From JAFGIT01 sp016929465 [NCBI: Candidatus Coatesbacteria bacterium] (lineage in GTDB: Bacteria > B130-G9), in contig JAFGIT010000243.1 in assembly GCA_016929465.1 (NCBI GenBank), forward strand, positions 1-12,062: a stretch of DNA of 12,062 bases, given 5' to 3'. Both the position numbers and the translations under genes were made by a program. This document shows, one piece after another, positions 1-12,062 of the stretch; the stretch's first letter is position 1, and every line of letters starts with the position of its first letter. The notes under the pieces were generated by a model. The model was not told the DNA's origin. It made no database searches and saw only the letters and a program-made list of their open reading frames with translations.

Positions 1-3000
1 GGAGCGGTCGTATCGTATTGCGTCTCGGTGTCCGCTTCCTGGGGCTGCGCTTCTTCATTGGACACATTGTCGGTGCTCACCGTGTAGAACCCGTATGTCC
101 CGTCCTGGCTCACATCGAAGGAGAAGCTTCCGCTCTCACCAGACTTGCTCTGTCCAGAGTCAATCCATCCTCCACCGTCGAATTGATACCAGAGATATGT
201 CCTGCTGACCCCGCACCCATCCGCATCGGAGGAGTTGAAGGCCACGATAATCGGAGAGCCGCTGGTTACATCGACCGACTCCGCATCCGAGGTGGGTGCC
301 TCGGTGTCAAATCTCGTGGTCGCGTCGGCAGCAGACGGGAACTCCTCCTCGTTGCCAACCGCATCGATGGCAATAGTACAGAATTCGTATTCGCCATCGC
401 CGTCGGGGAATTCGAACTCGAATTGCCCACTCGCGGCCTCAGAATGGAGCCCGCTGTCGGTCCATCCGCCACCCATTCTATAGAACAATAGGACTGCATC
501 GACACCGGCGAAACTATCCTCCGCCTCAAAGTCAATCAGCACCGAGTCTGCCGAGGTGCAGTCCATCTCCGCCGCACAAACCGAGGATGGAGCTTCAGGG
601 TCGTAATTCGTTTGGCAGTCGGCGTCCTCGGGGCTTCTCTCGCGCGAGCCCTCATTGCTGACGCCGATGGTGTAGAATTCATATACTCCCTCCCCTTGCT
701 CTGGGGAGTACTCGATGATGCCTTCCTCTTCCCCTCCAGTTTCGCCTGAGAAAGTCCAGTCGGGATCCCACTCCCCGGAACCATCCGACCAATATCTGAA
801 CCAGAGCTCCACCTCGAGCAGCCCCTCGCTGCCGGGAGCCGCCGAATACTCGACCGAGATCGTCGCGCCGCTACTCCATTCGGAGCACTCGCTGAATGTG
901 ATCGGCACGCGGTCGTCGAATAACGTCTCATCGTCCGCTTGCCCGGGCGCTCCTTCGATGTTGCCGGCGACATCCGTGCTCAATGTGTAGAATTGGTAGA
1001 GGCCATTTCCCGTTGACGGCGAGAATGCGAACGCCCCCGATTCACCCTCCTCGAACAGCCCTGAATCCGACCAATCAGGCGACCAGGATTCGCCCTCGTC
1101 CGGCGAGAACCGGAACCAGAGCGATGTCGATTCGATCCCGCAACCGCCGTCATCTGAAGCATTGAATGGAATCGTGACCGGGGATGAGTTGACATAATCC
1201 GGGGAGCTGCAAGATGATGACGGCTCTAAAGTGTCTAATTCCATCGAAGCGTCCGCAGATCCAGGGGCATCCTCGGTATTACCCGCATCGTCCTCGCTCA
1301 GGGTATAGAACTCATACTCTCCATCTGCACCCGGCTCGAAGTAGAACGTGCCGGTCTCGCCGGCTTCAGATTCTCCCGTGTCCTGCCAACTACCACCCTC
1401 ATAAGAAGCCCAGAGAGTGGTAAGCGCCACACCGGATCCTGCGTCGGATGCAGTGAAGTCGATAGGCACAGGCGATGAACTCGTGCAGCCAGATGCAGTG
1501 CAGCTCGACTCAGGCGAGGTGCTGTCGAAAAGCGTGGTGTCGTCCGCTGAACCAGGAGCGGTCTCTCGATTGCCGGCGTTATCGACGCATATCGTGTAGA
1601 ACTCGTAGGTGCCGTCGTCTCCAGCATCGAAGCTGAATGATCCGGGACTGCCCACCTTATACTGCCCGGAGTAATTGAACGCCCCGCCCTCGAATGAATA
1701 CCAGAGCTCCGTTCTCTTTACCCCTGAACCGCCTGAATTGTCAGATGCAGTGAATGTGACGGTTATCGGTGACGAGTTGACTAGATCTGGCGAACTCGCC
1801 GAGGATGAAGGCTCGGTGCAATCATAGAGGATGTCACAGTCGCAATAGTCGGGAGGCGTCTCCTCCCTACCCGCCTTGTCGGTCGCTATCGTATAGAAGT
1901 AATAGCGTCCCTCCTCGTCGAGGGTGTATTCGAATGAACCCGATTCGCCAGATTCCGACTGCCCGGTGTCGACCCACTCGCGACCGTCATAGTTGCGCCA
2001 TAGTCTCACAGTTTCCACACCCGACCCGGCATCACTCGCCGTGAATTCGATCGCTATGGTCGTCTCATTCGTGTAATCGGCTGTGCTGCAGCCCGATGAC
2101 GGAGGCTGCGTGTCATAGAGCGTGGAGTCATCTGGCGTTTCGGGGAGCGACTCCTGGTTCTGAGCGAGGTCCTTTGCACGCGATGCGAAGTAATATAGAC
2201 CATCCAGGGTCGGAGTGAACTCGAAGGAGCCTGAATTCCCTGACTCCTCGAGACCTGAGCTCTGCCAGCTCCCGCTCCCTCGCTTATACCACAGCACCGT
2301 ATAGTCCACCCCGCTGCCGCCCGTATCCGAGGCGGTGAAATCGACCTCGATCGGGGGCGACATGGAGTACTCAGGCGAACTCACCTCGGATGCCGGGCTG
2401 GTCTTGTCATAGGTCGTGGAATCATCCGCCCCTGAAGGTGGTGCCTCCTCATTCCCCACTTCATCGAATGCTATTGTATAGAACTCATAGACCCCTTCGC
2501 CCGTCAGATTGAAGTCGAAACTGCCGGATGCATTGCCTGATTGCTTACCCGAATCGTGCCAATCCCCGCCTGCATATCTATACCAGAGCCGCACTTTATC
2601 GATCCCGGAGCCGGAATCACTCGCATTGAAGCTAACCGAGACTGGAGTCGTCCGCGAATATGTGGGCGAGCTGCAGCTCGATGATGGCGCCGTTGCGTCG
2701 TATTCACAGCTGCAATCAGCCTGTGAGGGCGGTGACTCCTCATTGCCCAGCCGGTCAATTGCCAAGGTATAGAACTGATAGACACCCTCGGAGGAAAAGC
2801 TAAACACGAAGCTGCCCGATTCTCCGGACTCATCCAGTCCGCTATCTTGCCAATCTCCGCTTTCATAGCGATACCAGAGCGAAGTGGTCTGCACGCCAAC
2901 ACCACTCGCATCAGCAGAGTTGAAGCTGATGGAAAGCGTCGCTTCATTTGAGCCGGAGGCACAATTCCCCGACGAACTCGGCGCCGTTGTGTCATAGAGC

Positions 3001-6000
3001 GTCGAGTCATCGTGAGATGTGGGTGGGTCCTCCTCATTGCCCGCGTTGTCTTCGGCTATCGTGTAGAAATAATAGACTCCGTCAGAGCCAGGACTGAATT
3101 CGAATGATCCAGAACCTGACCCGCTGTGCAGGCCAGAATCAGTCCACCCGCCCGAATTCAGTTTATACCAGAGACGCGTGATAGCGAGACCGCTTCCACC
3201 AGCGTCAGAAGCACTAAACGAGACCTCAATGGGTGAAGAATTCTGGCTCTCGGGAGACTCGCAAGACGAGCTCGGCGCTGTAGTATCGACCACCGTCGAA
3301 TCATCGGGATTCTCGGGTGGGGCCTCGACATTGCCCACTTGGTCAACCGCGATGGTGTAGAAGTCATACCGGCCCTCTCCATTTGATGGGGAGAAAACGA
3401 AAGTGCCGGAATCCCCATCATCGGTAAGCCCAGAATCCTCGAAGTCGCCCCCCTCATATCTGAACCACAGACTGGTATAGTCTAGGCCAATGCCACCGCC
3501 ATTGTCCGTTGCCGTGAAATCAACGTCGATGTCACCATCCGAGTAATCCGGAGACGTGCACGATGATGAAGGCGGCGTTGCATCATACTCGCATTCGCAA
3601 TCCGCCTGCGACGGCGGCGGCTCTTCGTTGCCCAACTGATCTATGGCTATCGTGTAGAACTGATACGTCCCCTCCGAGGTGAAGCTGAACACGAAACTTC
3701 CAGATTCTCCAGACTCATCCTGTCCAGTATCCTGCCAATCTCCACTCTCGAATCGATACCAGAGGGCAGTCGTCTGCACTCCGGCACCGTCACCATCTGT
3801 TGAGCTGAAATTGACGGTTAGCGTTGCCTCCTTGGAGGCGGAATCACACTCTGAACATGAACTTGGAGCGATAGTGTCATAAAGCGTCGAATCATCGAAC
3901 GATGACGGCGGCTCCTCCTCGTTGCCTGCGTTGTCGATCGATACGGTGTAGAAGTAGTAGATGCCATCCGAACCAGGGCTGAATTCGAACACCCCCGAGG
4001 CTCCACCACTCTCGAGGCCGGAATCTGCCCACTCGCCATCGTCCAATTTGAACATCAGATGGGTTACGGCAAGGCCACTCCCATCCGCATCAGACGCGCT
4101 GAACGAGACCTCGATGGGCGATGAATTCTGACTCTCCGGTGACTCACATGATGAGCTTGGTGGTGTGGCGTCATATAGCGTTGAGTCATCGGGCTCCCCG
4201 GGTGGTGCCTCGTGGTTGCCCACATGGTCAACTGCGACGGTGTAGAAATCGTATCCGCCTTCTCCTTCGGACGGAGTAAAGGTGATGGTCCCCAGGGTGC
4301 CCTCTTCGGTCAGCCCTGAATCCTCGAATTCCCCGCCCTCGAAGCTGAACCAAAGACCTGTATATGCCACGCCTATCCCGCCTTCATTGTCCGCTGATAC
4401 GAAATCGACATTTATTTCACCATTCGCATACTCCGGAGATGTGCAGGCGGATGCGGGGGCCGTCGAATCGACCGTCGGGCCATCGATATCGCCTTCCTCC
4501 GGAAGTCGATCATCAGCTCCCCACTCATCCTCTGTGGTGAAATGAAATCTGTGGCCTCCCTCGGATAACCCGCTCAAGGCTGCTGCATAGACACCGTCAG
4601 CCTCGTCGCCGCTATCGAGCGTCATCGAGTGCGATTCGTCATCCAGGAGCACCTCGATGATCGCGGGCGCATCCCCATCCTGATCGTAATAGTGCGCAGA
4701 GAAGATGAAGACCGTTGATGCGGAGCCAATCTCCGGACTGACACATCCACCCGAGAGCACCGGCGCGTAGCTGACGACCGGCCCTTCGATTGCTCCTGTT
4801 GATGGGAATCTGGCCGTGCCACCCAGCTCATCTACCGCCTCGAAATAGAACTCGTGCGACCCCGCCGAAAGAGTGGCCATCTTCGAGTAAGTCCCATCCG
4901 AGGTCTCTCCGGAGTCAAGTTGAAGATCGAGCGGCGCATCATCGATATAGACGCAAATCTCTGAAGGGTCATCGCCCTCCTCGTCGTAGTAATGGACGCT
5001 GAATACAAACTCGGTCTCGGGGCTGCCATGCTCCGGATCCACCAAGCCCTCAGAGAGTACCGGGTCGATGTTGACGGCCGGGCCGTCATAGCTGCCCGAC
5101 TCCGGCTCCCTGCCACGACCCTCTCCGGTATCCTCGAATTCGAAGAAGTAGGTGTATGTCCCGGAGGACAGGGTAGTTGAATAGGAATAGACTCCACATT
5201 GGCTATCCCCCGAATCCAGGCTCATCTCATGCGGGGATTCGTTGATGAAAACGTAAGGATGGAGGGGATTGTCTCCATCCTCATCGCAGTAGTTCACATA
5301 GTAAGTGAACTCTGTATCCCCGCCACCGCGACTCGGAGTCACGTAGCCGTTAGCAAGCTCTGGATCGTGATTGACTTCCGGGCCTTCGTAGTCGCCCGTA
5401 GCGGGAAGCCTGTCGGTACCTCCATACTCATCGGAGAATGCGAAGTGATACGTGTGGCCTCCGCCTGATAGCGTGGTGGAATACGCATAGACTCCATCAT
5501 GGGCGTCCCCGGAGTCGAGTGTCATTGCATGGGGAGAACCATCGATCAGGACATTCTTGGCGGCAGGCGTATCCCCGTCCGCATCGAAGTAGCTGACCGA
5601 ATAAACAAAATCGGTCTGGGTGCTGCCAGAGCCCGGTGAGACCGTCCCGTCGGTGAGATCAGGGGGTGTGTTCTTCCTTACGGAGAGCGAGTAAGTTCCG
5701 CCCGTCTCCGAGCTGTAGGGATATACCCGGACGAAGTAGGTACCGGCCTCACTCGGAACATAGACGAGGCGGGACGCATGCCCCTCTCCGCCTTCATCAT
5801 CAGAGTCAATCAGCGTTTCACAGTCCGATTCATATAGCTCCAGAACCGTGTCGCATTCATCCCCCAGGTTACTGGTTTCCATTGTGTACTTCGAGCCTGC
5901 CAAGCCATCGAAATACACCCAGTCCTCATCGTCGGATGGAACGAGCGCTCTCTCTTGAGCAGCCCCACTTGTGGCGATGGCACCAGCAGAGGCGCAGGTG

Positions 6001-9000
6001 TCATCCGCCTCATAGCTATCACCCACTCGGGGGCCATCATAGTCGCCGGTCTCCGGGTCTCTCGCTGTATCACCATCGCCATCATCGAAGCTGTAGTAAT
6101 AGTCGTGCAATCCCTGAGAGAGCGTGGTCGAGTATTCGTACCAACCATCGCCAGCATTCCCTTCAGCAAGGGTCAGGGCATATTCGACGTCATCGAGCAC
6201 GACCGATGCCGTCGCCGGAGCATTCCCATCGGCGTCGGAGTACCTGACCCTGAACGTATATGTTTCGTCATCGCCAGCAAAGACGGGTGAGACGGTCCCC
6301 TCAGTCGCCATTGGCACGTAATTGACATCAGGCCCATCAAAGTAGTCGCTTGACGGCGCTCGGGCGGTATTTCCATTACCATCCTCGAAGTGGAAGTAGT
6401 AATCATGGGAGCCCTCATCGAGATAGGTCGTATATGCGTATGTCCCATCCGACGGATCACCAGAATCGAGCCGCATAGTCTTCGGTAAGTCATCTATATA
6501 GACTCGCTTGACTGTCGGCGTATCTTGGTCTGCGTCGTAGTAATAGACCGAATATCCGAACTCCGTGTCCAATGTGCCCGAAGGGGGCTCTACGGTTGCG
6601 CTCGAAAGTTCGGGCGCGGAATTCACATACGGGCCGTCGTAAGTTCCCGATGTGGGCAGTCTATCTGATCCGTCACCTGTCTCCGCATAGAAGTAGTAAT
6701 CGTGATAACCCGCCGACAGATAGCTGCTATACTCGTAGTATCCGGCGTAAGCTTCCCCGTCCGCGAGCGTCAAATCGTGAGGGGCGCCATCGATGAAGAC
6801 CTGAATCTCCGTCGGAGCTTCCTCATCGCCATCGCTGAAATGGACCCTGTATGTGAATTCAGTTTCGACTGTCCCCTCATCTGGATCCACGCCGCCATCA
6901 GAAAGCTCAGGATAATAGCTGACATCCGGCCCGTCGTATGACCCAGTCGTGGGCAACCTATCTGATCCCCCACCTTCGTCCTCGAAATAGAAATAGTAAT
7001 TATGGGAGCCGGAGCCCAGAGTGGTCTGATACGTATATGTCCCGTCAAAAGCATCGCCTGAATCGAGCGACATATCATAGGCTCCGTCATCAATATATAC
7101 AAAAGCCTCGCTGGGAGCCTCATCATTGGCGTCATAATAGTGGACTGAAAATGTGAATGTGGTCTCGGGCGTTCCCGATGTGGGATCGACCGATCCATCG
7201 GATAGCTCCGGATTGGTATTGCCCAGGCAGATTATCTTGTTGCCCAGGTAGCCAGTGCCGAATACTATCTGGCCGTTTGCAGAGAGGCATGGGGTGCAGT
7301 CGATATATTCCCCGGCATCATACGTCCATTTGAGAGTTCCGTCGCTGTTAATTGCAGACAGCTTGTTGTTCCTTGCTCCGATGTAAATGACGCCGTCGGC
7401 GTCGATCGCGGGAGAACTCCAGGCTGGGTTATTTCCGTCGTAACGATATGACCATTTGAGCTCGCCATCCCTGTCGAATGCACGGAGCACGCTCATGTGA
7501 TTGCCTATATAGAGCGTGCCATCCTCGCCAATTGCGGCTGACATTCTATCGAAAGAGGACATGGTGGTATAGGACCAAAACACATAGCCGCCGTAGTCGA
7601 TCCCGAAGAGGTTCCCCACACCTGTCGAATCACCGATATACACTCTCTGATCGTCGGTGAGGGTGGGAGCGGCCTCAAATACCGATCCCTCGAATTCGTG
7701 GGTCCATTCCCTTTCTCCATCAGCTGTCAATCTAACAACGGTGCCCTCTTGGGTGACAACGATGATCCCACCCGTATGCGTAATCACACCCGCCCGGTAA
7801 ACCTTGCCCGGAGTGTGGTAGGACCAGAGCAATTCCCCATCTACATTCATTGCAAACAGAATGCTCCCGAGAGATGTGAAATAGATTGTTCCGCAGTCCG
7901 TGATCTTCGGCGCTCCGCGAATCTCGAAACCAGTTGGGTAGGACCAGCGGAGATTCCCATCCGGATCCAATGAATAGAAGATGTGATCATCACTCCCGAA
8001 ATAGACGTTTCCTTCATTGTCGATAGCCGGGGTCGCATGGACCTGTCCGGCATTGTAAGTCCATTTCACCGTGCCATCGCTATTGAAGGCCCAGAGCTTG
8101 TTGAGCGTCTTGCTGCCCACATAGATCGACCCGTCGGGGCTCATAACCGGAGAGGAGAGCAGTTCCCCAGTGTTATCATAAGACCACTTGAAATAGGGCG
8201 CAACAGGCCCCCTGAAAATGCTCTGACTCTGGTTCGAGCCTCGATTCTGGTAGCTTGGCCACGGCCCTCTGTTGTCCTGATGCACATCCGGGCCCTCATA
8301 GGTGCCGGCGGCCGGTGCCCTATATGTCGCACCATTCTCATTTTCCAGATGGAAATAGTAGTTGTGAGACCCCTCCGATACCTTCGTGTGGTAGCGGAAT
8401 ATCCCGTTGTGGGCATTCCCATACTCGACGTTCATCTCGTGGGGCTCATCATCGATATAGACCAAAGCCTCCCTCGCATCATAGCTGTAGGCGTTGAAAT
8501 ACTTGAATTCATAGGCGAATTTTGTCTCGGTCGAGCCACATCCAGGATTCACTCCTATGTCAGATAGCCCCTCATCATAGTTGGTGAAGCACCGAAGCAT
8601 CCCGTCCCAACTGGTTATATAGAGATTGCAGAACGAGTCGTGCGACGGAGAACCCGTTATCCAGTCGCCGGTGCTATAGGACCACTTCAACAAGCCGTCG
8701 TTGCGAAGCGCATAGATCCTGTGGTCGTTGCTACCGACGTAAATGTCTCCGTGCTTGTCTATGAATGGGCTCCCCTGGACGGCGCCATCGGTCTGATAGC
8801 TCCAATTCAATGAACCATCAGAGTGCAGAGCAACTATCCTGCCCCCTTCGTTGCCAACGTAAATAGAGCCATCTGGGGCAAGAGCGGGTGATGAGAACAT
8901 CGCATAGCCCATGTCATAGGACCACACCGGATCGCCGGCAGAGTCGATTGAGTAGAAGTAGCGATCTGCAGAACCGAAATAGATGTTGCCGTCTTCGTCT

Positions 9001-12000
9001 ATGGCCGGCGAGGCCTCGATAACGCCGTCAGTCTGATAGCTCCATCTCGCTGAACCATCAGACTCCAAAGCATAGAGATAGCGATCGTAGCATCCGAAAT
9101 AAATCACGCCATCGTCGTCGAGCGCGGGGGAGGATATTATGGCTCCCCCTACGTCATAGGTCCAGTCAATGCTCCCTGACGACAAAATCGCGTAGAATTT
9201 GTAGGGATTCTCGCCGCCCAGGTAAATGCTGCCGTCAACGCCAATCACAGGAGAGCATATCTCGTGGGTGTTACCCATCTGGCAGGTCCACTGTACGTCT
9301 CCTTCCACGTTAATCGCGTATAACACTGCATCGGACGTGGGAATGTATAGAATTCCGTCATCGGACAAGGCTGCGGAAGCGTTGATCCGGCATGGATCGA
9401 GATCCATACTCCATCTGACCTCTCCTGCAGAATTCAACGAATAGAACTTCGTCGGATTCCCATTCTGTGAGCCGAAGTAAATGTTGCCCTCGTTATCGAC
9501 AGTGGGAGTCGTCATATTGATCGGATCGACCTCCGAATAGTTGAAACTCCACTTGAGCCGAGGTGTCAAAGGCCCCTCGAAATCTGTGCAGCTAGTGTGT
9601 CGGGGGTCATGCCTGAACATAGGCCACGGATGAGATGAGCCTTCCGAGACATAAGGCCCATCAAAAGTGCCACCATCCGGTAGGCGATAGGTCTGGCCGG
9701 AATTGTCTTCGAATTGGAAGTAGAAGCTGTGCTCCCCCGCCTCCAGCTGCATTGTATAGAGATATGTGCCGTAGTTCGATTCCCCATCATCCAGCTCCAT
9801 ATCATGGCCTTCGTCATCATCGATAAAAACCTGCGCCACATCGGGGGAGTAGCCGTAGTCATTGCAGTAATAGACGCGATACTTGAAATTGGTGCTCGTG
9901 TTACCAGAAGTGGGTCTGACACGCCCATCGGAGAGACCGCCCTGGCCGTGGTCGAATTTGAACATCATGCCGTTATCAGAGCCAACCAATAGGCTTCCAT
10001 CGGCATCGATGGCACAAGATGCGTTGACCGCATCACCCGTATCATAGGACCAGACGATGGTCCCGCCCGGCGAGAGGCAATAGACCTTGTGGTTCAATGA
10101 GCCTGCATATATGCGCCCACTCTGGCCGAGGGCCGGCGCGCAGTGCCAGTAGCCGCCGGCATTTAGTGACCAATTCAATGTGCTATCAGTGTTGATCGCG
10201 TAGAATTTCTGGTCGGATGATCCGATATACACAACTTCTCTTTCCTCGTCCACGAGTGGGCTTGCGAAGAGCATCAGCTCCTCCCCGCCTATCTCGAAAC
10301 TCCAGTCCAGGGAGCCATCGGAATCCAGGACAAATAGAATCCCGCCATCAGAAGCGAAATAGACTTCACCTTCGCTGTCGATTGCCGGACTCGATCGAAC
10401 CGCGGAGGAGCAGTGATACGACCAGACCTCCGAACCATCGCTGTCAAGGCAATACAAGTAGCCGCTTTCCGTTCCGAAATAGGCTCTACAGGAATCATCC
10501 AACGCGGGTGAGCTGCTTATATCCCAACTCGAGTTCGAACTCCATTTCAGGGAGCCATCAGGATTAATCGCAAATAGGTGCCCGTCGTCCCTGCTGCCTA
10601 TATATATTGTCCCCTGGTAGTCTATGTTTGGCGAGGAACGACCAGCGGCAGAGCCGAGGTCGTAGGACCAAAGCGCAGAGCCATCAGATGAAAGCGCGTA
10701 TAGATACTCATCGTCAGAACCGAAGTAGACGTTCCCTTCAGGGGAGAGGGCGGGCGAGCTCTGTATCGCTCCGGCCACGTTGTATGTCCATTCGATCCCG
10801 CCGGTGGGGTCCATGCAATAGAATTTGCCATTATCCGTGCCAAAATAGATCCGGGAGTTCGGGTCGATAGCCACTGAACTGACAACCGGATCATTCCCGG
10901 TATTATAGCTCCAGGCCGGCTCGCAGGTTGCCGGGCCTATATAATCCGAACGCGATGTGTGCCGCATATCGCGCATGAACCGGGGCCAAGGACCGGCCTC
11001 CTCATCCGATACTTCGGGGCCGTCGTAAGCACCGGAGGCTGGCAGACGGTAGTGATTGCCCCTCTCATCGACGAAGTAGAAGTAGTAGTGATGGCTGCCC
11101 TCGGAGAGCTCGGTTGTATAGGTATAGGTGCCGCAGTAGGCATACCCATCATAAAGCGACATCTCGAAGGGGGAGCCGTCGATATAGACGAAGGACTCGG
11201 AGGGCACATACTCGCTGTAATTACAGTACTTCACGCTATAGGTGAAGTCCGTCTGGCTACTCCCCCTGCCCGGATTCACCTTCCCATCCGACAAACCAGA
11301 GTCGTAGGAACCAACGGCGACAATTTCACCGTTGTCCAGCCCAACAACAACGACACTGTCGAGGTCAAAGGCCAGATTCGTCGTGATCGCATCGCCACAA
11401 TGAAAACGCCAGCGCTGCTCACCGTCATCGACCGTAAGAAGAGCTAAATAGCCATCAACTGAGCCAACGACCACCTTGTCTCCGCGTCCCACGAGCGGTG
11501 ATACTGGCGCTCCTCCGCTGTCATACGACCATCGGAGATCGCCATTCGATTCGAGCGCATACAGCATTCCGTCGAGCGAGCCGACCACAAAGACGCTGTC
11601 GTAATTTGTCGCTCCCGACATCTCGACCGCAGAGTCGAGGTCATACGACCATTCCAGGGAGCCGTCGGGATTGAGGCAATAGACCTTACCTTCCAGATTC
11701 CCAAAGCAGATATTCTCATTGGGAAGAACTGTAGGCGAAGCCTTGATTGCTGCGCCAGAATCGTACGACCAAAGAGGGTCTCCGTCCTTTGACAATGCGT
11801 AACAATAGCCATCCCTGCTTGCAAAGACGACATCGCCGCCGTAAGTCAGACACGGGGTCGTATCCGTCTTATCATCTGCCTCATAGCTCCAGAGGAAATT
11901 CCCCGCGGACGACAATGAAAAGAGCTTATTCACCGTCGCAGAGCAGAAGAAAATCTGCCCCTCGGAATCTATCGCTGGGCAGCTATTAGATATGTCGCCG

Positions 12001-12062
12001 CCGGAATCATACGACCAAACCGGCGCACCGGCGGAATCGAGGCAATAGAGGTTGTCGTCCCA
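1..12062 (-). CDS. Giant modular secreted/surface protein (PQQ-like beta-propellers + Ig-like arrays + PPC domain), partial at both ends
   Basis: A single reading frame from 12062 down to 3 is open for 4,020 codons, with no stop; neither the start nor the stop codon is in the window. In order it encodes: part of a propeller (residues 1-254); an Ig-like module (255-351); three more eight-repeat propellers, each followed by one Ig-like module (352-1714); three further tandem Ig-like modules (1718-2013); a PPC-type domain (2014-2129); four Ig-like modules (2134-2531); and fifteen modules of a second Ig-like family (2532-4016). All recognisable domains are non-catalytic and typical of exported proteins. 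I infer a surface or secreted role in adhesion, scaffolding or ligand binding. The signal peptide and any C-terminal anchor or sorting signal would lie outside the window. The frame is intact and repeat motifs are conserved throughout, so it is a functional gene and not a pseudogene. The exact function is unknown. Confidence 0.97.
3..602 (-). repeat. Family II Ig-like modules 14 and 15, and the start of module 16
   Basis: Residues 3821-4016 hold modules at 309-602 and 15-308, both 98 residues. Module 14 has LLFYRMGGGW in place of LWY and FCTIAIDAVGN in place of FYTIAVDNAGN. Module 15 is close to consensus (LWYQFDGGGWIDSG, GFYTVSTDNVSN). Codons 3-14 encode DTTA, the first four residues of a sixteenth module, so the array continues past the left end of the window. 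Confidence 0.86.
603..1235 (-). repeat. Family II Ig-like modules 12 and 13 with a tryptophan-rich insertion
   Basis: Residues 3610-3820 hold two adjacent modules, 918-1235 and 603-917, of 106 and 105 residues; the other modules have 97-99. The extra residues lie right after the LWFRF/LWFRY strand and read SPDEGESWSPDW in module 12 and WSDGSGEWDPDW in module 13. Module 13 has drifted from the family consensus elsewhere: it begins DDRVPITFSEC, has VEYSAAPGSEGLLEV in place of the ASDxGxG region, and has YTIGVSNEGSRE. Sharing the insertion suggests that one of the two arose from the other. Confidence 0.85.
1236..2699 (-). repeat. Family II Ig-like modules 7-11
   Basis: Residues 3122-3609 hold five modules: 2409-2699, 2115-2408, 1824-2114, 1527-1823 and 1236-1526, each 97-99 residues. 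All keep the LW[YRA] strand, the GxxGxF strand and the D..G/Q.x[EQ] ending. Module 8 has diverged at the usual FYTIAVDNAGN site (YYFASRAKDLAQNQ). Module 9 ends with YCDCDILYDC, the third CxC linker in the array. Module 10 begins directly after that and holds SPDLVNSSPITVTF, close to module 12. Module 11 ends with SADASMELD. Confidence 0.87.
2700..3584 (-). repeat. Family II Ig-like modules 4-6 (second copy of the three-module unit)
   Basis: Residues 2827-3121 hold modules at 3288-3584, 2994-3287 and 2700-2993, with lengths 99, 98 and 98, the same as modules 1-3. Module 4 resembles module 1 (DDSTxxD ending; LWFxxEGGxFEDSGLT). Module 5 resembles module 2 (CESPESQNSSPIEVSFSAS is identical). Module 6 resembles module 3 (VQTT, LWYRxESGDWQD, SQADCxCEYDAT). 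Comparing 4101-4160 with 3216-3275 gives 49 of 60 matching bases; 3601-3660 with 2716-2775 gives 44 of 60. Many of the differences are silent. This is a tandem duplication that has diverged under protein-level constraint. Confidence 0.9.
3585..4469 (-). repeat. Family II Ig-like modules 1-3 (first copy of a three-module unit)
   Basis: Residues 2532-2826 hold three modules: 4173-4469, 3879-4172 and 3585-3878 (99, 98 and 98 residues). The family pattern is DxTxPxSxC at the start, SPIEVxFxASD, GxG[VI]xxTxLW[YF], GGxWxDSG, GxFxFxP, GxYxFYT[IV]A[VI]D, GNxExPP and ends in DDSTLY. It resembles bacterial Ig-like repeats often annotated as OmpL47-type or plain Ig-like. Module 1 contains no lysine or arginine and about 20 acidic residues. 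Module 3 ends with DCECEY in place of DDSTLY. The unit is 885 bp and is followed by a diverged copy of the same length. Confidence 0.88.
4470..4763 (-). repeat. Ig-like module K (family I), last of its family in the window
   Basis: Residues 2434-2531 run from PVLSGGCVSPEIG to DIDGPTV. The loop is DQDGDAP, followed by EVLLDDESHSM. It has one extra residue in the ADGVYAAALSGLSEGGH region. Its final valine is followed at once by DSTAP, the first residues of the second module family, so the two families join without a linker. Confidence 0.86.
4773..5063 (-). repeat. Ig-like module J (family I)
   Basis: Residues 2334-2430 run from PVLSEGLVDPEHG to AIEGPVV, with loop DEEGDDP and strand CVYIDDAPLDL. 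The period from module I is exactly 300 bp. Confidence 0.87.
5073..5363 (-). repeat. Ig-like module I (family I)
   Basis: Residues 2234-2330 run from PELANGYVTPSRG to SYDGPAV, exactly 300 bp after module H. The loop is DEDGDNP; the following strand reads YVFINESPHEM, with asparagine where most copies have aspartate. Two cysteines (YCDED and SQCGVY) are unusual for the family. Confidence 0.87.
5373..5663 (-). repeat. Ig-like module H (family I)
   Basis: Residues 2134-2230 run from PDLTDGTVSPGSG to DYEGPEV, starting four residues after the PPC-type domain. The loop DADGDTP is complete. Strand NVLIDGSPHAM and DGVYAYSTTLSGGGHTYHFAFSD match the family. Confidence 0.87.
5676..6023 (-). other. PPC-type (bacterial pre-peptidase C-terminal) domain
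   Basis: Residues 2014-2129 show the PPC signature in order: DSYEADDTCASAGAI at the start, DEDWVYFDG, YTMETSNLG, CDTVLELYESD, LIDSDDEGGEG, and YVPSEAGTYFVRVYPYS leading to GTYSLSVR. PPC domains are beta-sandwiches usually found at the ends of secreted proteases and other exported enzymes, where they are thought to help secretion or substrate/ligand binding. Here the domain is internal, with four family I modules on each side, and no protease domain is visible. The family assignment rests on the conserved DxDWxxF and GxYxxxV patterns. Confidence 0.9.
6024..6314 (-). repeat. Ig-like module G (family I)
   Basis: Residues 1917-2013 run from PMATEGTVSP to DYDGPRV. The start is less conserved (PMATEG in place of PELSDG). 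The loop is DADGNAP, a near-complete acidic loop. The module ends directly against the PPC-type domain. Confidence 0.86.
6324..6614 (-). repeat. Ig-like module F (family I)
   Basis: Residues 1817-1913 run from PELSSATVEPPSG to YFDGPDV, with loop DADQDTP, strand RVYIDDLPKTM and DGTYAYTTYLDEGSHDYYFHFED. Start-to-start spacing is 297 bp from module E and 300 bp to module G. Confidence 0.87.
6624..6911 (-). repeat. Ig-like module E (family I)
   Basis: Residues 1718-1813 run from PELSDGGVDPDEG to TYDGPYV, joined to module D by the three residues SYY. The loop reads DGDEEAP and the strand after it VFIDGAPHDL. The ending DRLPTSG is nearly the same as in module D. Confidence 0.87.
6921..7211 (-). 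repeat. Ig-like module D (family I)
   Basis: Residues 1618-1714 run from PELSDGSVDPTSG to SYDGPDV. It both closes propeller unit 4 and begins a tandem array with a 100-residue period. Its loop reads DANDEAP, partway between the degenerate loops of A-C and the full DxDGDxP of later copies. Other family I elements are present: AFVYIDDGAYDM, DGTYTYQTTLGSGSHNYYFYFED and DRLPTTG. Confidence 0.87.
7212..8282 (-). repeat. Linker plus eight-repeat beta-propeller 4
   Basis: Residues 1261-1617 start with a lead-in that keeps PWP but has lost the rest of the usual motif (PWPSYQNRGSNQSQS, then FRGP). Eight repeats follow, with tryptophan codons at 8184, 8061, 7944, 7824, 7704, 7575, 7452 and 7326, spaced 39-43 residues. 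Blades are more divergent than in propeller 3; for example one has WTHEFEG and another GGIIVVTQEGTVVRL. The final blade ends in IICLGNTNPEL, which passes directly into Ig-like module D. After this point no further propeller repeats occur in the window. Confidence 0.92.
8283..8570 (-). repeat. Ig-like module C (family I), closing propeller unit 3
   Basis: Residues 1165-1260 run from GLSDIGVNPGCG to TYEGPDV. The family I framework is clear (KFAYEFKYF, ALVYIDDEPHEM, GIFRYHTKVSEGSHNYYFHLEN, RAPAAG). The acidic loop is replaced by NAYSYDA. At 96 residues it is one residue shorter than modules A and B. Confidence 0.85.
8571..9647 (-). repeat. Linker plus eight-repeat beta-propeller 3
   Basis: Residues 806-1164 open with the clearest lead-in motif in the window, PWPMFRHDPRHTS, then FEGPLTP. 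Eight repeats follow, with tryptophan codons at 9549, 9411, 9288, 9162, 9042, 8922, 8802 and 8682. The first repeat is longer (46 residues); the last four steps are exactly 40 residues. The middle repeats are the most regular (WSYQTDG...SPAIDEDGNIYFGSxDRYxYxLxSDG). Two blades, 240 bp apart (around 9031 and 8791), still share a 32-base stretch with 4 mismatches, which suggests fairly recent blade duplication. The fold is PQQ-like/BamB-like; the ligand is unknown. Confidence 0.93.
9648..9938 (-). repeat. Ig-like module B (family I), closing propeller unit 2
   Basis: Residues 709-805 run from GLSDGRVRPTSG to TFDGPYV and carry the family I pattern (NFKYRVYY, VFIDDDEGHDMEL, GTYLYTMQLEAGEHSFYF, YRLPDGG). 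The presumed metal-loop position reads CNDYGYSP instead of DxDGDxP, as in modules A and C. It directly follows the last blade of propeller 2 (MMFKFDHGQ) and precedes the lead-in motif of propeller 3. Confidence 0.85.
9939..11009 (-). repeat. Linker plus eight-repeat beta-propeller 2
   Basis: Residues 352-708 begin with an acidic linker and the motif PWPRFMRDMRHTS, followed by IGP. This resembles the PWPMFxHDxxHTG-type lead-in often seen just before PQQ-like propellers. Eight repeats follow, with key tryptophan codons at 10911, 10788, 10668, 10542, 10422, 10302, 10170 and 10050. Spacing is 40-44 residues. Most repeats have WSYxxGxxxxSSPAxxxxGxxYFGSxDxxxYxLxxDGS. Eight blades form a closed ring in PQQ-like propellers. 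Several blades carry cysteine in the YCLD strand. No catalytic quinoprotein residues are recognisable, so a structural or ligand-binding role is more likely. Confidence 0.93.
11010..11300 (-). repeat. Ig-like module A (family I), closing propeller unit 1
   Basis: Residues 255-351 run from SGLSDGKVNPGRG to AYDGPEV. This is a ~97-residue beta-sandwich-type module with the family pattern: LSDGxVxPxxG at the start, then a TxFxYxVxY strand, VYIDG, DGxYxYxTxLxxGxHxYYFxxxD and LPxxGxYDGPxV at the end. The loop that carries DxDGDxP in later copies reads CNYSEYVP here, so the acidic residues are missing. I do not match the module to a named Pfam family with certainty; an Ig-like or cadherin-like fold is inferred from strand spacing. 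It sits directly between two propellers and probably acts as a rigid spacer. Confidence 0.85.
11301..12062 (-). repeat. Beta-propeller 1 of PQQ-like WSY repeats (partial, six repeats visible)
   Basis: Residues 1-254 hold six repeats of about 40 residues. Each is marked by W-S-Y or W-R-F, with the tryptophan codons at 12015, 11889, 11769, 11649, 11529 and 11409 (lowest base), so the spacing is 126 and then 120 bp. The consensus is WSYDSGxxxxxSPxxxxxGxVxxGxxDGxxYxLxxDG, the pattern of PQQ-like/BamB-type propeller blades. The window opens in the middle of a blade (DNLYCLDSAG). The complete propellers downstream have eight repeats and a constant unit length, so about two blades and the N-terminal linker, roughly 310 bp, should lie beyond base 12062. 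These repeats are a structural fold; nothing here shows quinone binding or dehydrogenase activity. Confidence 0.92.

What the first reader, a model, noticed from the sequence alone, without database searches (positions are those of the whole stretch)
1..12062. One uninterrupted frame across 12 kb: a giant protein gene with no visible start or stop
Seen directly: 4,020 consecutive sense codons on the minus strand, with repeat motifs readable from the first to the last codon. A protein of more than 4,000 residues made of propellers and Ig-like arrays is rare and easily missed, because gene finders may break it or leave it out when it runs off a contig. I infer an exported giant surface or extracellular protein.
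Basis: partly seen in the sequence, partly recalled or inferred. Interest (0 to 1): 0.65.

Follow-up and report, generated by a model that had tools for sequence, protein, structure and literature searches.

The report
Middle of a giant secreted protease
The window is the middle half of one real gene for a roughly 7,700-residue exported protein: a subtilisin-type protease domain at the front, a very long chain of propeller and immunoglobulin-like modules, and an undescribed small module at the tail.

Summary
The minus strand is open for 4,020 codons, where about 162 stops would be expected. The frame is under strong protein-level selection: an orthologue in another genus (G001) is 65.4% identical over 3,725 residues, codon-position identities 0.75/0.80/0.39.

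The window is a whole contig, so both ends are contig breaks. I found both missing ends. The 3' end is on contig C235 of the same genome: 2,046 more codons, then TAA. The 5' end is on contig C83: leader, KP-43-like S8 protease with intact triad, propeller, two A domains, PPC. In G001 the two halves overlap by 46 bases, 44 identical, in frame; the best match elsewhere is 31 of 46. Estimated length is about 7,713 residues.

Complete shorter relatives on single contigs show the same order: S8, Ig array, C-terminal module. The tail module has no clear Pfam match and lies within 35 residues of the stop in 70 of 86 ORFs with the stop in view.

Best reading: a giant exported stalked protease; surface anchoring is inferred.

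The parts
3..12062 (-). Middle of the giant gene: 4,020 codons, open at both contig ends (P0001)
11298..12062 (-). Propeller I (5' part cut by the contig end), residues 1-255
   Evidence: 5 full blades and one fragment found by the blade HMM; 7 blades in the same propeller of G001:C84
11004..11294 (-). Type A Ig-like domain 1, residues 257-353
9951..10913 (-). Propeller II, eight 40-residue blades, residues 384-704
   Evidence: AF2 model; VIA-align Z 50.7 to Cake8 6tjg, rmsd 1.1, 320 aligned
9642..9935 (-). Type A domain 2, residues 710-807
8583..9551 (-). Propeller III, eight blades, residues 838-1160
8277..8567 (-). Type A domain 3, residues 1166-1262
7254..8186 (-). Propeller IV, eight blades, residues 1293-1603
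6018..7205 (-). Type A domains 4-7, residues 1620-2015
   Evidence: A profile matches PDB 6fhj residues 820-903, E 1.6e-11
5721..5930 (-). PPC domain PF04151, residues 2045-2114
4464..5657 (-). Type A domains 8-11, residues 2136-2533
3..4454 (-). Type B Ig/FN3-like domains 1-15, residues 2537-4020; 18 more follow on contig C235
   Evidence: AF2 of a pair pLDDT 96.9
3570..4454 (-). First copy of a tandemly duplicated block of three B domains (295 codons)
2685..3569 (-). Second copy of that block; the one long gap against G001 falls in this duplicated region

Best explanation
The window is the middle of one gene for a giant exported subtilase of about 7,700 residues. Shown by sequence: a hydrophobic leader, a KP-43-like S8 protease with D/H/S triad, a propeller, two A domains and PPC (contig C83); then, after a gap of about 293 codons filled only in G001, four propellers alternating with A domains, more A domains with a PPC, and 33 B domains (window plus C235); then two copies of a C-terminal module and a stop. 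Inferred mechanism: the leader sends the chain through Sec. The acidic Ig/propeller chain, probably stiffened by Ca2+ at the B-domain acidic residues, forms a long extended stalk. The C-terminal module sorts or holds the protein at the cell surface, so the protease works far from the cell on proteins of neighbouring cells, polymers or detritus, with the propeller and A domains as binding surfaces.
For: Selection on the protein. Ends: C235 continues at G001 residue 3988 where the window stops at 3986, 57.3% identical, to a TAA. C83 and C3 are orthologues, 66.8% over 1,360 residues, close to the window's 65.4%. C3 and C84 overlap 44 of 46 bases in frame; the next best place is 28 of 46 in C3, 30 of 46 in the rest of C84, and at most 31 of 46 in the other 491 of 492 fetched strand-sequences, many of which overlap each other (the 492nd is a copy of C3). 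S8: PF00082 E 1.4e-38 and 1.1e-34; PDB 1wmd E 9.1e-65 over 466 residues with the triad aligned; DTGV, GHGTH, NSWG, GTSM motifs in both. Same order on single, stop-bounded contigs: S8-A-B16-C (2,585 and 2,584 codons), S8-A-B15-C (2,507), S8-A4-C (two of 1,265) (these five were chosen because an S8 query found them). C module near the stop in 31 of 42 ORFs of the own genome and 39 of 44 in four other genomes. pI 4.05 and no internal hydrophobic segment in the window, C235 or C84. Five positions of the B repeats are acidic in 27 to 31 of 33: D22 31, D73 31, E79 29, D86 27, D92 30.
Against: The gene is never seen on one contig. In the window's genome 293 codons between C83 and the window are missing and known only from G001, and extra or collapsed repeats at the window/C235 join cannot be excluded. 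The C3/C84 overlap has two mismatches, which an exact contig overlap would not. The blade HMM finds only 7 blades in C83's propeller (8 in C3). Protease activity, export, Ca2+ binding and anchoring are untested. The C module is N-terminal or internal in 16 of 86 ORFs with the stop in view, so it is not strictly a C-terminal signal. One complete giant relative in the same genome (C201, 3,824 codons) has no S8 domain. No orthologue was found in two of four family genomes, both drafts.
Confidence: 0.7

Rival explanations
1. A giant adhesin that works like SiiE: the repeats bind surfaces or glycans, and the S8 domain only matures or releases the adhesin, or is a passenger.
For: B-pair model matches SiiE BIg domains (2yn3_C Z 10.2, rmsd 3.5, 174 aligned; weak sequence match E 0.088) and a GhpA fragment (9fls, E 1.1e-4). 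Five conserved acidic positions per B repeat parallel the five D/E of most SiiE BIg domains (PMC5466336, passages). The A domain resembles a domain of 6fhj. A complete giant relative, C201, has the same repeats without S8.
Against: FN3 pairs score as well or better (3pdd Z 12.6), so the SiiE match is one of fold only. The S8 triad is kept in both orthologues at normal divergence, as expected if it works. Two of the S8 relatives are short (1,265 codons, four A domains), where the protease is a large part of the protein; but these relatives were found by an S8 query, so they say nothing on how often S8 is absent.
Confidence: 0.3
2. Two or three separate genes or paralogues: the C83/C3 subtilase and the window/C84 gene are not one gene.
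For: They never lie on one contig; the overlap has 2 mismatches in 46; A domains are a repeat at which assemblies could misjoin; I tested the right ends of only four G001 contigs.
Against: Complementary open ends in both genomes, similar divergence (66.8% and 65.4%), in-frame 46-base overlap far above the best other match, 31 of 46.
Confidence: 0.08
3. Secreted, not anchored: the protein is released and the C module is a structural cap or a binding domain.
For: The last 266-273 residues have no Pfam match up to E 10 and no NCBIfam match up to 0.1, no LPXTG at the very end by eye, and no hydrophobic segment. SprA_N gave 0 of 4 genomes, but the control was silent too, so that is inconclusive. 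The module also occurs N-terminally and internally.
Against: Strong preference for the last 35 residues in five genomes of four families looks more like a sorting or docking role.
Confidence: 0.35
4. Chance open frame or assembly artefact.
For: None beyond the absence of start and stop in the window.
Against:: orthologue in another genus, codon periodicity, log10 P about -72.
Confidence: 0.01

Closest known systems
KP-43-type subtilases (PDB 1wmd, listed as 'protease'; the name KP-43 is recalled)
   Same: Catalytic domain plus C-terminal barrel align over 466 residues, E 9.1e-65, triad kept
   Different: The 1wmd chain is 434 residues; here the same unit heads a chain of about 7,700 residues
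Cell-envelope S8 proteinases (C5a peptidase, SGO_0316/0317 family)
   Same: N-terminal S8 domain followed by FN3/Ig domains and a C-terminal end used for attachment (layout recalled)
   Different: No LPXTG at the end by eye; five propellers and 33 or more B repeats; weaker match than 1wmd; far below the curated cut-off
Giant adhesin SiiE of Salmonella (PMC6272769: search listing only; PMC5466336: abstract and passages)
   Same: Size class (595 kDa, 53 BIg repeats), Ig-array fold, conserved acidic residues
   Different: SiiE is a type I secretion substrate; here there is an N-terminal leader and a protease domain
Giant proteins of Omnitrophota and other PVC-side lineages (PMC12057145: passages; its ref. 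20: nothing read)
   Same: Huge genes in uncultured lineages, predicted extracellular
   Different: Here an S8 protease head and a recurrent tail module are identified, and the length is moderate (about 7.7 thousand against up to 85.8 thousand residues)
BamB and PQQ-type propellers
   Same: 8-bladed fold, W-motif blades
   Different: TIGR03300 below cut-off (282.3 against 285.2 bits summed over the whole window protein); blades of about 40 residues, four propellers in series in the window

Membership tests
Peptidase S8 (subtilase) | PF00082 match above the curated cut-off | tested here: met
   133.3 and 120.5 bits, cut-off 21.8; on contigs C83 and C3, not in the window
Peptidase S8 (subtilase) | Asp/His/Ser triad and oxyanion Asn motif (motifs recalled) | tested here: met
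   DTGV, GHGTH, NSWG, GTSM in both orthologues; aligned with 1wmd
Peptidase S8 (subtilase) | Proteolytic activity | not testable with these tools
   needs expression
KP-43-type subtilase | Catalytic domain with C-terminal barrel aligned over the whole 1wmd chain | tested here: met
   residues 1-433 of 434 covered; sequence only, not folded here
Type I secreted giant adhesin (SiiE-like) | Tandem Ig-like array in a protein over 4,000 residues | tested here: met
Type I secreted giant adhesin (SiiE-like) | No N-terminal signal peptide; C-terminal type I signal (recalled) | tested here: inconclusive
   a hydrophobic leader at C83 residues 9-34 speaks against it, but by eye only; the type I signal was not tested
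T9SS substrate | Known T9SS C-terminal tail domain | tested here: not met
   no NCBIfam match in the last 266-273 residues, E up to 0.1, nor Pfam match up to 10
T9SS substrate | SprA in the genome | tested here: inconclusive
   0 of 4 genomes, but 0 of 14 controls rang too
BamB | TIGR03300 equivalog cut-off | tested here: not met
   282.3 against 285.2 bits
PQQ-dependent dehydrogenase | Cofactor site residues | not tested
   blades are about 40 residues; argued from that only

The most novel reading that the evidence does not exclude
This lineage and a few unrelated ones share an undescribed protein-sorting system: a roughly 105-residue module, at the last residues of dozens of exported proteins per genome, targets them (giant stalked subtilases among them) to the outer surface, in the way the T9SS tail or LPXTG does elsewhere.
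Probability: 0.25. Interest if true: 0.75.

Novelty: new variant of a known kind. Interest (0 to 1): 0.5.

Why it matters
A contig that looked like an endless repeat gene turns out to be the stalk of a giant secreted protease whose head and tail lie on other contigs of the same draft genome. It gives a testable architecture (protease head, stiff stalk, tail module) shared by shorter complete relatives, and points to an unannotated terminal module present at dozens of places per genome, which could reveal how an uncultured lineage sorts its exported proteins.

Tried and rejected
Chance or artefact: rejected. Tandem Repeats Finder (periods up to 500) found no DNA-level array, so single repeats are old. 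BamB or PQQ enzyme as a name: rejected. A and B domains as one family: an iterated HMM merges them, but A-only against B-only profiles give probability 20% and E 0.0011 over 36 columns, so I keep two types. Genome-contig scan with the window alignment found nothing (only two short patterns were used). The genome of the first (G060) shows the same contig places as G002, so I take them as one. Upstream piece in G001: of eight contigs fetched, the right end of four was reached; C34 ended in B repeats, C141 in other sequence, C92 had no open frame of 60 codons, only C3 fitted. SprA search uninformative. Literature: on giant genes and proteins; on 'giant subtilisin/subtilase/serine protease/proteases/peptidase/S8' (one paper, unrelated by title and start of abstract). 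So I saw no report of such a protein in the held open-access library; I do not claim there is none elsewhere.

Confidence in the best explanation went from 0.72 to 0.70 for that reason.

Full report
THE OBSERVATION. The minus strand of the window is open from base 12062 to base 3: 4,020 codons. By base composition 162 stops are expected and the probability of none is about 10^-72; the five other frames hold 87 to 237 stops each. The window is the entire contig C382 of a draft genome of 3.19 Mb in 423 contigs, 86% complete, so both 'missing' ends are assembly breaks.

THE FRAME IS A GENE. A genome of another genus in the same family, G001, has a contig (C84) with an orthologous frame of at least 6,033 codons. 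It is 65.4% identical to the window over 3,725 residues with five gaps. Identity at codon positions 1/2/3 is 0.754/0.801/0.393, the mark of strong selection on the protein with silent sites near saturation. The one long gap is 295 residues, the length of three B repeats. In the window the blocks 2537-2831 and 2832-3126 are a tandem duplicate of three repeats, 65-79% identical in protein and only 42-47% identical at third positions.

ARCHITECTURE IN THE WINDOW. Part of one propeller and three full 8-bladed propellers, each followed by an A-type Ig-like domain (unit 454-455 residues); then three more A domains; PPC (PF04151); four more A domains; then 15 B-type domains of about 98 residues. NCBIfam calls the B type OmpL47-type; 10 of 11 B pairs match it. 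AlphaFold2 from window-only alignments gave a propeller-plus-A model with mean pLDDT 79.9 (blocks of the propeller 77-97; the A domain 54-77, so that part is weak) and a B-pair model with pLDDT 96.9. The propeller matches the designed Cake8 (Z 50.7, rmsd 1.1, 320 aligned) and natural YxaL and BamB. The B pair matches FN3 pairs (3pdd Z 12.6) and SiiE BIg domains (Z 10.2, rmsd 3.5, 174 aligned). These are fold matches, not proof of function. The A profile matches residues 820-903 of PDB 6fhj, E 1.6e-11; I recall this entry as a Paenibacillus GH9 xanthanase. The window protein has pI 4.05, net charge -543 and no hydrophobic segment.

THE 3' END. Residues 4000-5666 of G001's frame, searched in the four family genomes, hit contig C235 of the window's own genome at 59% identity over their whole length, and the last 266 residues hit it at 51%. 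On C235 the frame starts at the contig end and runs 2,046 codons to TAA. Aligned to G001, the window ends at residue 3986 and C235 begins at residue 3988, so one split codon separates them. Collapsed whole repeats at this join cannot be excluded. C235 adds 18 B domains (33 in all, against 30 in G001) and two C-terminal modules.

THE 5' END. Of eight G001 contigs fetched, the right end of four was reached, and only C3 carried a frame ending in half an A domain. Its last 46 bases equal the first 46 of C84 at 44 places, in frame. The best other place is 28 of 46 in C3 and 30 of 46 in the rest of C84; of 492 other fetched strand-sequences one, itself a copy of C3 (L147), has 44 and the other 491 at most 31. 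The window's genome has the orthologue of C3 on contig C83, 66.8% over 1,360 residues, codon positions 0.762/0.818/0.404. C83 begins with an ATG, a hydrophobic leader and a purine-rich stretch upstream (by eye). It continues with Peptidase_S8 (PF00082, E 1.4e-38), whose best PDB match is 1wmd (KP-43, name recalled), E 9.1e-65 over 466 residues with the triad aligned, then a propeller (7 blades found in C83, 8 in C3), two A domains and PPC. From C83's end to the window's start G001 predicts 293 codons, which one search found in no contig of the window's genome at orthologue-level identity (150 of 173 candidates scored). Estimated length from the ATG: 7,713 residues, of which 7,419 are seen, 799 kDa. 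In G001 the frame is 7,480 codons stop to stop.

RELATIVES WITHOUT ANY JOIN. Five stop-bounded frames on single contigs keep the same order: S8-A-B16-C in G003 (2,585) and G001 (2,584), S8-A-B15-C in G002 (2,507), S8-A4-C in G002 and G001 (1,265 each). They were found with an S8 query, so the shared S8 is by choice; the shared order behind it is not. A stop-bounded 3,824-codon frame in the window's genome (C201) has a leader-like start, propellers, A, PPC, B and three C modules but no S8. So the gene belongs to a family-wide set of modular proteins.

THE TAIL MODULE. About 105 residues. The last 266-273 residues have no Pfam match up to E 10 and no NCBIfam match up to 0.1. Of 15 members scanned singly, one gave Wzt_C at E 0.0044 and one Big_3_5 at 0.056. 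In 37 regions of the window's genome, taken from the hits, 49 ORFs carry it; of 42 with the stop in view, 31 have it within 32 residues of the stop. In regions from G001, G050, G090 and G222 the figures are 16 of 16, 6 of 8, 7 of 10 and 10 of 10 within 35 residues. Several of the exceptions place it right after a leader-like start. A profile search found it in 11 of 290 genomes: all four of the family and seven others.

HOW IT PROBABLY WORKS. Shown: leader-like start, S8 domain with triad, repeat chain, tail module, selection on the whole. Inferred: export by Sec; a stiff stalk; Ca2+ at five positions of the B repeats that are acidic in 27 to 31 of 33, by analogy with SiiE, where most BIg domains hold five conserved D/E that bind two Ca2+ (PMC5466336, passages); tail module for sorting or anchoring; protease head at the far end acting on proteins outside the cell. 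Rivals are an adhesin whose protease only matures it, and a freely secreted enzyme.

KNOWN OR NEW. Each domain type but the tail module resembles known ones. Giant extracellular proteins are known in bacteria, uncultured lineages included (PMC11573180 and PMC12057145, passages). The combination (S8 head, five propellers, 33 B repeats, tail module) I found nowhere in my searches. I call it a new variant of a known kind.

ORGANISM. Unnamed. Of the 60 genomes three besides the window's own are of the same family and the rest are labelled only 'same domain', so no nearer order, class or phylum relative was given. One of the three appears to be the MAG AUK292, by inference from the Auka vents. Orthologues of the window gene at over 60% identity were seen only in G000 and G001; the best-scoring hits in G002 and G003 were partial, 47% and 40% (where 8 candidates per genome were scored).

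Noticed in passing
L103 (G000:C235) 9455-13186 minus strand: Directly downstream of the giant gene's stop lie phage genes: portal protein (PF05133 E 1.1e-19) and major head protein (phrog_3990 E 6.6e-26). In G001 the frames after the stop look different by eye. A prophage or remnant seems to sit beside the gene in one genome only.
   Followed up: partly
L103, L104-L139, L169-L208: Undescribed ~105-residue module near the stop of many ORFs in five genomes of four families, sometimes right after a leader-like start instead.
   Followed up: yes
window 2685-4454: 885-bp in-frame tandem duplication of three B repeats, old by silent sites: the array grows by whole-repeat blocks.
   Followed up: yes
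L217 (G000:C254), L218 (G000:C301), L123 (G000:C201), L209 (G001:C34): Further giant frames of about 2,600 to 3,800 codons with the same module kinds; C254 holds two in a row on one strand.
   Followed up: partly
L219 (G001:C3) 53-4199 and L220 (G000:C83) 3-5494: Upstream neighbours of the gene differ between the two genomes by eye (PTS-like frames in C3, other frames in C83); no profile search was run on them.
   Followed up: no
L103 5754-6452 minus strand: Frame matching queuine tRNA-ribosyltransferase families near the phage genes.
   Followed up: no
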